Source: a virus. Taken from it: DNA of 40,070 bases. The stretch is taken from positions 1-40,070 of the IMG/VR virus record IMGVR_UViG_3300009488_000032; one strand, given 5' to 3'. Shown one piece after another: positions 9,025-40,070 of this stretch. Both the position numbers and the translations under genes were made by a program. The notes beneath the pieces are model-generated. The model ran no database searches and had not been told where the DNA came from. It was given only the letters and a program-made list of their open reading frames with translations. Positions within the stretch are counted from its first letter, which is position 1, and every line of letters starts with the position of its first letter.

Positions 9025-9077
9025 AGTTTTCAAAAACCTCCGATTTTCCTTGACACGCGCTCAAGACGTGGTATACT
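9025..9077 (+). promoter_or_regulatory. Likely sigma-70 promoter with A/T-tract upstream element
   Basis: TTGACA (9050-9055) and TATACT (9072-9077) are separated by 16 bp, the best consensus match in the window. AGTTTTCAAAAA (9025-9036) lies 13 bp upstream; the same 12-mer precedes TTGACA at 39519. It follows the TGT-like gene stop and would drive the small-gene block from 9182. A transcript would start near 9084, just before a small hairpin TGAGT/ACTCA (9085-9100). Confidence 0.75.
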
Positions 9078-9110
9078 GTAATCATGAGTCGGGCAACTCA
9101 CATACAAGAT

Positions 9111-9176
9111 ACCGGATCGGCGGCCTTCTGGGGCGTCTGCCCGGCTCCCCCGGTGGGTCGCCGGTCCGGTTGGAGG
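9111..9176 (+). promoter_or_regulatory. Structured 5' leader ending at the Shine-Dalgarno
   Basis: ACCGGATCGGCG (9111-9122) pairs with CGCCGGTCCGGT (9159-9170): 12 pairs with one G-U, closing a 36-nt loop. The stem ends one base before TGGAGG (9171-9176), so folding would directly affect ribosome access to the gene at 9182. It resembles the leader at 9733 in sequence as well as shape. Confidence 0.55.
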
Positions 9177-9426: not shown

Positions 9427-9726
9427 ATGAGATGGGAAAAGATCGGGGATATGAGAGGCAAGATGCTTCTCCTGCCTGCGGTGGGCGATGAGTGGGTTCT
9501 TTGTGGCCCGGGAGCATCCCCAGCCACAGAGGAACAGGCGATGGCGGTGGTGCTCCCCGACGGGGGATTCCCCGGCCATGTGAGTCGAGGCGGATATCAT
9601 TGGATGGCGCGTCGGGATGCACTGCCGGAAATGCCATCATCCAAGCCGCGGCCAGTGTCGATAATGGCACGCTGCCCATCGCCGTCATGGCGGGACGATG
9701 ATGGGCAACACGGCCACGGACGATGA
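9427..9726 (+). CDS. Hypothetical protein, 99 aa; reading frame uncertain
   Basis: ATG 9427 has a good ribosome site (GGGAGGTGAGAG). The first ~65 residues look protein-like (MRWEKIGDMRGKMLLLPAVG, MAVVLPDGGFPG, GGYHWMARRDALPE). The last ~30 are Pro/Ser/Asp/His-rich and poor. In another frame the same 3' DNA ends in a better-looking stretch, NAIIQAAASVDNGTLPIAVM, with TGA at 9699-9701. A frameshift or a sequencing error near 9600-9630 would explain both. Confidence 0.4.
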   Translation: MRWEKIGDMRGKMLLLPAVGDEWVLCGPGASPATEEQAMAVVLPDGGFPGHVSRGGYHWMARRDALPEMPSSKPRPVSIMARCPSPSWRDDDGQHGHGR

Positions 9727-9732
9727 TCACAC

Positions 9733-9789
9733 GACCGGCGGCCCTGCGTCGGTGCTTCCCGTTCCTCGCGGGGTCGTCGGTCTTGGAGG
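9733..9789 (+). promoter_or_regulatory. Structured 5' leader ending at the Shine-Dalgarno
   Basis: GACCGGCGGCCC (9733-9744) pairs with GGGTCGTCGGTC (9771-9782): 12 pairs with two G-U, closing a 26-nt loop. TTGGAGG (9783-9789) follows directly. The segment shares CGGCGGCC, GGGTCG-CGGTC and TTGGAGGT-GAG with the leader at 9111, so the two look like diverged copies of one element. Confidence 0.5.
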
Positions 9790-9796
9790 TGAGGGG

Positions 9797-9997
9797 ATGA
9801 TCGAATACCATATTTTCACCGCGACGTTGCGGGGTGGCGATCTTGCGACCTTCCTGATTTCGGACGATGCCTTGGCCGATGGCGATCCGGAGGTTTTTCT
9901 TCCGATCGGGGTGCGCGAGATCAGCGACCACGGCACGGTCGAAATCAGCGGGCCGGAAGAGCACATGCTGACCGAGTACTTCTCGGACAAGTCATGA
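9797..9997 (+). CDS. Small hypothetical protein, 66 aa
   Basis: ATG 9797 has a strong ribosome site (TTGGAGGTGAGGGG). A longer in-frame start at 9698 would run through the hairpin leader and is less likely. The product is acidic (MIEYHIFTATLRGGDLATFL, EISGPEEHMLTEYFSDK), with alternating strands. It is ATGA-coupled to the next gene. Confidence 0.6.
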   Translation: MIEYHIFTATLRGGDLATFLISDDALADGDPEVFLPIGVREISDHGTVEISGPEEHMLTEYFSDKS

Positions 9998-13448: not shown

Positions 13449-13501
13449 TTGACAAACAATCCCCGTCTGTGTAATGCCTTGATCGAGGGCTAGGCTCTCG
13501 A
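13449..13501 (+). promoter_or_regulatory. Candidate late promoter and hairpin before terminase
   Basis: TTGACA (13449-13454) is followed after 15 bp by TGTAAT (13470-13475), or after 17 bp by the weaker TAATGC. A hairpin follows, TCGAGGGC (13483-13490), loop TAG, GCTCTCGA (13494-13501), eight pairs with one G-U. GAGGCGG before ATG 13516 is the ribosome site. The gap marks the border between the small-gene block and the packaging genes. Confidence 0.5.
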
Positions 13502-13515
13502 CTGCGAGGCGGTCA

Positions 13516-14199
13516 ATGGCAAGAACCCCACCCCCTAGGGGTCGGCCTTATGCCGAGCCGACAAGCAAGACCAAGCCCGTCAAGCGCTGCGGCGCGAAGA
13601 CAAGCAAAGGGAAGCCTTGCCAGAACTACGCCGGGAAGAAAACCGATCACGTCGGAGAAGGAAAGTGCTGGCTTCACGGCGGGCGGGGTGGGGCCAAGCG
13701 GGATAGCCCAATTACACACGGCCTCAAGATCGCAGCACTCCGGCCGTCAACCTATCCGCGGGCCAAAGAGATCCGCGTCGTGGTCGACGCCGCCTTCGAC
13801 GGCCAGGGCGATCTGTGGTGGGCGCGGGATCTACTCCGGACACAGATCCGGATCTGCTATGACCGAATGTGCACGCTCGAGGTCATGCGAGACGGAGAGG
13901 ACGGCGATCCGTCAGAGGCATTTCTTGCTGCACTCGAGGAACAGTTTGGCCGCTGGTTCACCAGGGCGTCAACGCTCACCGCGCAATTGCCCCGGCTCAT
14001 GCTGGAGATCAAGAAGCTCGGATTGGAGGAGAAAGACAAGACATACGCTCTTTTCGTCACGCCTCCCGAGGGCGTTGATTTCGTTCCTTTCCGTGCTGGC
14101 GATCTTCCTGTTGACACGCGGGACAACTTCTTGCGCGCCTATGCTCAGAAGCTCATCGACTCGGGCGACCTGGACAGTGACGATGACGGACGTGATTGA
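13516..14199 (+). CDS. terS: Terminase small subunit
   Basis: The first 60 residues hold CGAKTSKGKPCQNYAG and, after a spacer, GKCWLHGGRGGAKRDSPITHG (seen in two parts): cysteines 25, 35, 51 and His54 of a small zinc-stabilised motif common in phage terminase small subunits and related packaging proteins. The middle is helical (WWARDLLRTQIRICYDRMC). The protein would bind the packaging site and regulate the large subunit. The position directly before the large subunit and the 17-bp overlap with it support the call. The call rests on motif and position, since small subunits diverge strongly. Confidence 0.8.
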   Translation: MARTPPPRGRPYAEPTSKTKPVKRCGAKTSKGKPCQNYAGKKTDHVGEGKCWLHGGRGGAKRDSPITHGLKIAALRPSTYPRAKEIRVVVDAAFDGQGDLWWARDLLRTQIRICYDRMCTLEVMRDGEDGDPSEAFLAALEEQFGRWFTRASTLTAQLPRLMLEIKKLGLEEKDKTYALFVTPPEGVDFVPFRAGDLPVDTRDNFLRAYAQKLIDSGDLDSDDDGRD

Positions 14200-37906: not shown

Positions 37907-38004
37907 TTGACAATTTCAGAAACCCGCGACGATACTGGATCACCTTGTCTCCTGTCTCCCGAGCCCGTCGGTTGTCATGTCGCCGGCGGGCTCATTTACG
38001 GAGG
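37907..38004 (+). promoter_or_regulatory. Candidate promoter and leader hairpin before the holin gene
   Basis: TTGACA (37907-37912) starts one base after the amidase stop; GATACT (37931-37936) follows with an 18-bp spacer. GAGCCCGTCGG (37961-37971) pairs with CCGGCGGGCTC (37983-37993): 11 pairs with one G-U and an 11-nt loop. GGAGG (38000-38004) lies six bases later and ATG at 38010. No T-tract follows the stem, so control of translation is more likely than termination. Confidence 0.55.
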
Positions 38005-38009
38005 TCGTC

Positions 38010-38399
38010 ATGGGACTCGCCGAACTCTTCGCGCAACTACTCCTCGATCACTACCTGCTGGCCGGCGGGACGATTGCTGTGCTACTCGTCTTGCGGCGCA
38101 TGCTCCCGTCCGCATTCACGGCCTGGCGTAAACGGCTCGCCGTCCTATACCCGATCGTGCTTGCGTCGGCCGGGGCGTTCTGCGGGTTGAGCACGTTCGA
38201 CAAGCCAGCGGAGCGGGTCGTCGTCGGCTTGGTGATCGGGCTGCTCGCATCGCTGGTTTTCAAGCTCGCCAAGCCGTTGCTTCGGCGCCTACTGAGAAAG
38301 ACGTTCGCGTTCACCGACGACGAACTCAGCATCGCCACCGCAATCCTCGAGCGGCACAATGAGGATACGGCAGACAAGATCGTGAGTTACCCGCTGTGA
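38010..38399 (+). CDS. Holin candidate, 129 aa, several membrane helices
   Basis: The protein has an N-terminal hydrophobic helix (LLAGGTIAVLLVL), a second (LYPIVLASAGAFCGL) and a third (VVVGLVIGLLASLVF), with basic residues between and a charged C terminus (FTDDELSIATAILERHNEDT). Size, helix number and position after the endolysin fit a class I-type holin, which makes holes in the inner membrane to release the endolysin. The gene overlaps the next by GTGA. Confidence 0.65.
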   Translation: MGLAELFAQLLLDHYLLAGGTIAVLLVLRRMLPSAFTAWRKRLAVLYPIVLASAGAFCGLSTFDKPAERVVVGLVIGLLASLVFKLAKPLLRRLLRKTFAFTDDELSIATAILERHNEDTADKIVSYPL

Positions 38400-39502: not shown

Positions 39503-39547
39503 AGTTTTCAAAAAAGACTTGACAAGTCCCCCGACCTGTGCCATTCT
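39503..39547 (+). promoter_or_regulatory. Candidate promoter with the shared A/T tract
   Basis: AGTTTTCAAAAA (39503-39514) is identical to the tract at 9025. TTGACA (39519-39524) follows, then CATTCT (39542-39547) after 17 bp, which is a weak -10. A transcript would begin near 39554, exactly where the interlocked leader starts. Confidence 0.55.
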
Positions 39548-39553
39548 GCACGG

Positions 39554-39635
39554 GCATGGTTGACTTGACCACTAACCCCCGTCGTCCGATCCGGCACTCC
39601 CGTGCCACAACCATGCACGGGCGGCGGGGGCTTTT
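39554..39635 (+). promoter_or_regulatory. Structured RNA leader with interlocked inverted repeats and a terminator-like stem
   Basis: Arm A GCATGGTTG (39554-39562) pairs with A' CAACCATGC (39608-39616), nine pairs. Arm B CCCCCGTCGTCCG (39576-39588) pairs with B' CGGGCGGCGGGGG (39618-39630), 13 pairs with two G-U. The order is A, B, A', B', so the two helices form a pseudoknot or exclude each other. An inner hairpin GGCAC-TCCC-GTGCC (39593-39606) sits between. B' is followed by CTTTT (39631-39635), so the B stem may act as a weak terminator. Ribosome site GGGAGGTAGGAG precedes ATG 39648. Confidence 0.5.
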
Positions 39636-39647
39636 GGGAGGTAGGAG

Positions 39648-40070
39648 ATGATTCTGACAGGCGATGCATTGGGCGCTGCTCTGATCGCCCTTGAGCGGGG
39701 ACGATTATGGTGGCGGGTGACCGATCAGTATGGCAGAAGTTGCAACGGGGGCAACCGATCGTTTCGGCTCGTCTCCTCGTCGCCCGGCATGCCCGGGGAA
39801 TGGGCGCCCCGCATCGACAGCGTGAGTATGTGCTATCGTGGCTATCATGTTACATCCGATCCAATTAGGTGGCGGGGGCTCCGCGTGGTGTTGGTCGAGA
39901 TTGATGAGGTAGTCGGTCGACAGGAAAACAAAGCGCTCTGCCATACATTTCGCGAGATTGGTGTGGTTGAACCGTGGGATTGCTGCGACCCACGGGTCTG
40001 GGTGGCGGCATCCCGACCGCTACTCGACGGGGCCAGTCTCGACGGGGCCAGTCTCGACGGGGCCAGTCTC
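39648..40070 (+). CDS. Pentapeptide-repeat protein, cut by the window end
   Basis: The frame is open from ATG 39648 to the last base, giving 141 residues; the true 3' end is outside. The N-terminal ~124 residues (MILTGDALGAALIALERGRL, WWRVTDQYGRSCNGGNRSF, ..., DPRVWVAASRPL) are a separate domain of unknown function with several Trp and Cys. Three LDGAS-type units end the visible part (LLDGASLDGASLDGASL), the A(D/N)LxG-like pattern of pentapeptide repeats that form a right-handed beta helix. Such proteins can mimic DNA, but the role here is unknown. Confidence 0.75.
   Translation, partial: MILTGDALGAALIALERGRLWWRVTDQYGRSCNGGNRSFRLVSSSPGMPGEWAPRIDSVSMCYRGYHVTSDPIRWRGLRVVLVEIDEVVGRQENKALCHTFREIGVVEPWDCCDPRVWVAASRPLLDGASLDGASLDGASL
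40026..40070 (+). repeat. 15-bp perfect tandem repeat, three copies to the window end
   Basis: GACGGGGCCAGTCTC occurs at 40026-40040, 40041-40055 and 40056-40070 without a change. It encodes DGASL units of the pentapeptide gene. Perfect identity at all positions suggests recent expansion, and the array may continue past the window. Confidence 0.95.

What the first reader, a model, noticed from the sequence alone, without database searches (positions are those of the whole stretch)
39554..39635. Interlocked inverted repeats upstream of a pentapeptide gene
Two stems in the order A, B, A', B' start at the predicted transcript start and end in a T-tract-like CTTTT, with a small hairpin between. 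The arrangement fits a pseudoknot, or a switch in which A pairing excludes the B terminator stem. This could be a phage attenuator or ligand-sensing leader. The gene it controls is otherwise unremarkable, so the purpose of such control is unknown.
Basis: seen in the sequence. Interest (0 to 1): 0.6.

Follow-up and report, generated by a model that had tools for sequence, protein, structure and literature searches.

The report
Twin pseudoknot-forming phage RNA leaders
The start of this phage transcript can fold into two interlocked stems, and the same unusual layout, built from unrelated letters, recurs at the start of a second transcript in the same phage, so it is probably a real shape-based RNA control element of unproven function.

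Summary
Downstream of a sigma70-type promoter (TTGACA 39519, CATTCT 39542) the predicted transcript starts with arm A (39554-39562), perfectly complementary to 39608-39616. B (39576-39588) pairs over 13 bp (two G-U) with 39618-39630, interlocked with A. A 5-bp hairpin lies between, and CTTTT, a Shine-Dalgarno sequence (SD) and ATG follow. No dinucleotide shuffle of the leader (0/4000) reached it. New here: a second leader (9086-9170), after the only other promoter carrying the box AGTTTTCAAAAA, has the same order, similar spacing, start point (+1 to +3) and SD-abutting base, with longer arms (10 and 16 bp) and no sequence similarity. In the whole 40-kb viral contig, both strands, only these two places meet the strict criterion. 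This favours an RNA element in which shape, not sequence, matters. The second leader has no T-tract, so a terminator/attenuator is not a shared feature. No homologous leader was found: the only relative of the downstream gene lacks it, and Rfam has no match. Cross-species covariation is therefore untestable. Best guess: a 5'-end-tucking pseudoknot that protects early mRNAs and holds the SD at its base. An HK022 put-like antiterminator is the main rival. Mechanism unproven.

The parts
39503..39514 (+). AGTTTTCAAAAA box upstream of the promoter (UP-element-like)
   Evidence: Exact 12-mer occurs twice in the window (9025, 39503), both just upstream of TTGACA; 0 of 200 shuffled windows hold a copy.
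39519..39547 (+). sigma70-type promoter TTGACA-17-CATTCT
   Evidence: Sequence, pattern search. Consensus match only.
39554..39562 (+). arm A at the predicted transcript start
   Evidence: 9 bp with 39608-39616, stacking -17.3.
39576..39588 (+). arm B
   Evidence: 13 bp with 39618-39630, stacking -31.2.
39593..39606 (+). hairpin C, GGCAC-TCCC-GTGCC
39608..39616 (+). arm A'
   Evidence: lies in the unpaired 11-nt strand of the B hairpin in the minimum-energy fold
39618..39630 (+). arm B'
39631..39635 (+). CTTTT tract
   Evidence: absent from the twin leader
39636..39641 (+). Shine-Dalgarno GGGAGG
   Evidence: 6 nt before ATG 39648
39648..40070 (+). pentapeptide-repeat protein gene (cut by the contig end inside its repeats)
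   Evidence: relative L002 has Pfam Pentapeptide
9025..9077 (+). twin leader: AGTTTTCAAAAA box and promoter TTGACA-16-TATACT
9086..9095 (+). twin leader arm A
   Evidence: 10 bp with 9138-9147, stacking -22.8
9111..9126 (+). twin leader arm B
   Evidence: 16 bp with 9155-9170, stacking -37.0
9138..9147 (+). twin leader arm A', 10 of the 14 nt of the apical loop of the long hairpin
9155..9170 (+). twin leader arm B', followed by TGGAGG and ATG 9182, without a T-tract
37961..37993 (+). related but simpler leader hairpin (12 bp) after promoter 37907, before an SD; no A arms
9733..9782 (+). another 16-bp hairpin abutting an SD (TTGGAGG) and ATG; no promoter or strong A arm recognised

Best explanation
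The element is one of a pair of 5'-terminal, pseudoknot-capable RNA leaders that head two separately promoted, probably early, operons of this phage. In each, a very stable hairpin (B) stands directly against the ribosome-binding site and carries an exposed strand (A') complementary to the first 9-10 nucleotides or so of the transcript (A). The likely action is by shape: the 5' end tucks into the hairpin as a pseudoknot. That would hide the triphosphate end from 5'-end-dependent decay and keep the Shine-Dalgarno in a short open gap at the hairpin base, making early messages long-lived and translatable. Shown: the arms, their arrangement, their recurrence, their place relative to promoter motif, SD and ATG, and the lack of shared sequence. 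Inferred: transcription start, pseudoknot formation, early timing, and the effect on decay and translation.
For: Two leaders with the same order and similar spacers (L1 13/15, L2 19/11, L3 1/7 nt), each starting at +1 to +3. They are the only strict cases on both strands; shuffles 0/4000 and 1/4000 at the positional criterion. The leaders show no sequence similarity beyond chance (376 of 500 shuffles score at least as well) while their promoter regions do (0 of 500): shape kept, letters not, so the arms of the two copies differ yet still pair. L1 could span the stacked helices at 4.4-4.6 angstrom per nt in both, so the knot is not excluded sterically. Four of the six strongest + strand hairpins abut an SD-ATG. 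Known precedent: 5'-terminal base pairing controls RNase E-mediated decay (Bouvet and Belasco 1992; Emory et al. 1992; titles in the reference list of PMC3997798).
Against: No homologous leader, so no cross-species covariation. Start sites, pseudoknot and stability effect are untested. The nested energy model already gives the B fold high stability (-40.1 here, -53.0 in the twin), so A:A' may be transient. SD exposure is not predicted robustly once coding sequence is included. Two instances are few. Shuffled windows hold 0.48 strict cases on average. The mRNA-protection step rests on analogy only.
Confidence: 0.4

Rival explanations
1. A protein-free RNA antiterminator that works like HK022 put: the nascent leader folds, stays bound to RNA polymerase and lets it read through terminators in the early operons.
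For: HK022 carries two put elements of about 70 nt downstream of its two early promoters; putL lies just downstream of PL and its first pair involves A3 (PMC9378689). Here there are two elements of 77 and 85 nt at +1 to +3 of two promoters.
Against: putL and putR resemble each other in sequence and bind the beta' zinc domain; these two leaders have no sequence similarity. put has two stem-loops, and the paper does not mention a pseudoknot.
Confidence: 0.2
2. A transcription attenuator: B plus CTTTT terminates, and A:A', closed first during transcription, delays or excludes it.
For: Order of synthesis (A' before B') and the CTTTT after B'; the simpler leader 37961-37993 is followed by ATTTA.
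Against: Only four T, then GGG; the twin leader has no T-tract; A:A' is much weaker than B:B'. The terminator scan does not list it, though that scan's loop limit would exclude it.
Confidence: 0.12
3. A translational operator bound by a phage protein, as T4 gp32 binds the pseudoknot in its own leader.
For: Pseudoknot-capable leader near an SD in a phage; T4 gene 32 precedent (PMC3014915).
Against: Two leaders without shared sequence head unrelated genes; neither product matches a known RNA- or DNA-binding family.
Confidence: 0.12
4. DNA-level operators: the dyads and the repeated 9-mers CCYGTGCCA and TGCACGGGC around -10/+1 and +46 to +69 are repressor sites, and the RNA pairing is a by-product.
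For: Direct repeats 39535/39599 and 39547/39614; GTGC-N6-GCAC spans the -10.
Confidence: 0.08
5. Chance arms in a GC-rich leader.
For: Shuffled windows hold 0.48 strict arrangements on average; no conservation available.
Against: Two cases, both at predicted starts of the two box promoters and both against an SD.
Confidence: 0.08

Closest known systems
HK022 put RNA (putL/putR)
   Same: Two structured RNA elements of about 70-85 nt per phage at or near two promoters; the first pairs begin at the 5' end (PMC9378689).
   Different: put copies share sequence and have two stem-loops; these leaders share no sequence, have interlocked arms, and abut an SD.
T4-type gene 32 leader pseudoknot
   Same: Phage mRNA leader pseudoknot upstream of a ribosome-binding site (PMC3014915).
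   Different: Gene 32: pseudoknot 67 nt upstream of the start codon, with an A+U-rich stretch between. Here: long GC-rich stems whose base is 11-17 nt from ATG, before two unrelated genes.
5'-terminal mRNA-stabilising stem-loops (ompA, papA, aprE leaders)
   Same: 5'-terminal nucleotides held in base pairs; known to slow decay (titles in the reference list of PMC3997798).
   Different: Those are simple stem-loops; here the 5' end would pair into the loop of a second hairpin.
HDV-like ribozymes
   Same: P1 at the 5' end, interlocked P2, small hairpin between (own knowledge).
   Different: Only 1 nt between A' and B', so no P4 or J4/2 catalytic segment; no Rfam match.

Membership tests
HK022 put antiterminator | two elements per phage downstream of early promoters | tested here: inconclusive
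   Two leaders at two promoters; early timing is inferred only.
HK022 put antiterminator | sequence similarity between the copies and two separate stem-loops | tested here: not met
   No similarity beyond shuffles; arms are interlocked.
HK022 put antiterminator | terminator read-through by modified RNA polymerase | not testable with these tools
   Needs a transcription assay.
Intrinsic-terminator attenuator | stable GC-rich stem followed by a U-tract | tested here: inconclusive
   Stem yes, tract only CTTTT then GGG; absent in the twin leader.
Known riboswitch or other Rfam family | covariance-model match at gathering score | tested here: not met
   No match for the window; only chance matches at E up to 10.
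H-type pseudoknot | two interlocked helices, arms in order A B A' B' | tested here: met
   Arms present in both leaders. That both helices form at the same time is not tested.
H-type pseudoknot | compensatory change in homologous leaders | not testable with these tools
   No homologous leader: L002 lacks it, L003 is identical at the twin leader, L146 differs. The two leaders of this phage differ in all arms yet keep pairing.
T4 gene 32-type operator | bound by the protein encoded downstream | not testable with these tools
   Needs a binding assay.

The most novel reading that the evidence does not exclude
The two leaders are founding examples of an undescribed class of sequence-independent, 5'-end-tucking pseudoknot leaders that phages place at the very start of early transcripts, controlling message life, translation or polymerase processivity by shape alone.
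Probability: 0.25. Interest if true: 0.75.

Novelty: new variant of a known kind. Interest (0 to 1): 0.5.

Why it matters
[quoted passage not shown] Two leaders in one phage with the same interlocked layout and unrelated sequences could be a second kind of phage leader pseudoknot, one that sequence-based RNA searches cannot find because only shape recurs. It suggests a simple way to look for more: scan phage transcript starts for interlocked arms beginning at +1.

Tried and rejected
Homologues of the leader: the exact A-arm pattern in all viral contigs gave 12 hits, about as many as chance predicts, in unrelated contexts. No DNA match in 50,697 phage records. Relatives of the downstream gene: one (L002, 62% aa), with about 30 nt between genes and no such leader; none in genome contigs. 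Relatives of the gene after the twin leader: L146/L148 (Roseateles sp. YR242 prophage) has interlocked repeats AGGCAAG/CTTGCCT and GTAATACGC/GCGTATTAC. They end 37 nt or more from the SD, span a possible promoter, and stand out only in a hand-picked 85-nt stretch (0 of 500) and not clearly in the wider one (26 of 500), so they look operator-like and were not counted. L149 shows nothing. Background scan of about 2.5 Mb of other loci, mostly of lower GC: 9 strict rows, none with both promoter and SD context. SD occlusion by L1 as a switch: appears in the short fold but is not robust when 40 nt of coding sequence are added. Replication origin: GC skew shows no turning point at either leader. HDV-like ribozyme: no room for the catalytic segment, no Rfam match. 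One search timed out and was redone.

Full report
What is there. The window is a 40,070-base viral record, about 60% GC. A DNA-metabolism region (polymerase exonuclease subunit, methyltransferase) lies to the left, terminase, major head protein and probable tail genes in the middle, and an amidase and small genes to the right. At 39503-39650 lie, in order: the box AGTTTTCAAAAA, TTGACA-17-CATTCT, arm A (39554-39562), arm B (39576-39588), hairpin C (39593-39606), arm A' (39608-39616), arm B' (39618-39630), CTTTT, the Shine-Dalgarno GGGAGG and the ATG of a pentapeptide-repeat gene that the contig end cuts.

Is it more than chance? The ordinary fold is not exceptional (z -1.2). The interlocked arrangement is: summed stacking energy -48.5 against a shuffle mean of -28.0 (0 of 1000), and 0 of 4000 shuffles met the positional criterion. 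Across the window a strict scan (weaker helix at most -15, B at most -25, 95-nt span, both strands) finds two places only. Shuffled whole windows hold 0.48 such places on average, with totals reaching -56.6, so the bare count is weak evidence. The positions are not: both begin at +1 to +3 of a predicted start and both end against an SD.

The second leader. I looked at it because its promoter (TTGACA 9050, TATACT 9072) is the only other place in the window with the exact 12-mer AGTTTTCAAAAA. Its hairpin was seen first; the interlocked arms were found afterwards. A is 9086-9095 with 9138-9147 (10 bp), B is 9111-9126 with 9155-9170 (16 bp), followed by TGGAGG and ATG 9182. A' fills 10 of the 14 nt of the apical loop of a 23-nt-arm hairpin. 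The two promoter regions are similar (0 of 500 shuffles), the two leaders are not (376 of 500 shuffles score as well or better). So the layout recurs while every arm has different letters, which is the within-genome equivalent of compensatory change. It could also be two independent origins under the same constraint.

What it is not. The B stem is not a shared terminator: the twin has no T-tract. The strongest hairpins of the + strand tend to abut an SD (four of six: 9111-9170, 9733-9782, 37961-37993, 39576-39630), which fits a role at the ribosome-binding site or in message stability better than termination. No Rfam family matches. An SD-occlusion switch by the loop L1 is seen in the short folds but is not robust with coding sequence added.

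Relatives. The downstream protein has one relative, on L002 (62% over 124 aa), placed between a DnaC-like ATPase gene and a DnaB-like helicase gene (my reading of the translations), with a gap of about 30 nt and no such leader. This suggests that the gene belongs to an early replication module and that the leader is not tied to the gene family. L003, another contig of apparently the same virus, is identical over the twin leader and does not contain the reported one. The gene after the twin leader has a relative in a Roseateles prophage with a different, operator-like upstream region. Hence cross-species covariation cannot be tested with what is held.

Mechanism. Because shape recurs without sequence, models that need a sequence-specific partner (riboswitch ligand, RNA-binding protein, RNA polymerase contact as in put) are less favoured than a physical role: the first 9-12 nt of the message tuck into the hairpin beside the SD, hiding the 5' end and holding the SD at the hairpin base. 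5'-terminal pairing is known to control RNase E-dependent decay (works listed in PMC3997798). The put parallel (two elements of about 70 nt downstream of two early promoters; PMC9378689) is close in anatomy and remains the main rival. At equilibrium B:B' with C (-33.7) outweighs A:A' with C (-18.7), so A can matter only as part of a knot or transiently during synthesis. The linker lengths permit a knot (4.4-4.6 angstrom per nt across stacked helices in both leaders). That is a rough geometric check, not a model.

Verdict. Real and recurring architecture, likely an RNA element, mechanism open. The interest is moderate because only one virus shows it and nothing has been measured.

Noticed in passing
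37907-38012: Promoter TTGACA-18-GATACT followed by a 12-bp hairpin (37961-37993), ATTTA, SD and ATG 38010: a simpler leader of similar plan without A arms, at the start of the probable lysis genes.
   Followed up: partly
9733-9797: 16-bp GC-rich hairpin directly before TTGGAGG and an ATG, inside what ORF calling gives as one 99-aa ORF (9698-9997); the true start may be near 9797.
   Followed up: partly
39535-39555 and 39599-39622: Two colinear 9-mers, CCYGTGCCA and TGCACGGGC, occur over the -10/+1 region and again inside the leader; they are not explained by the RNA pairing and could be operators.
   Followed up: partly
40023-40070: The contig ends inside 15-nt tandem repeats of the pentapeptide gene, probably an assembly break.
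   Followed up: no
L146 4872-4943 (also L148): Prophage of Roseateles sp. YR242: interlocked inverted repeats AGGCAAG/CTTGCCT and GTAATACGC/GCGTATTAC upstream of a relative of the 9182 gene, operator-like.
   Followed up: partly
13449-13550: TTGACA with a possible TAATGC/TGTAAT -10 upstream of the terminase gene, a candidate late promoter; weaker interlocked helices (-26) in its leader.
   Followed up: no
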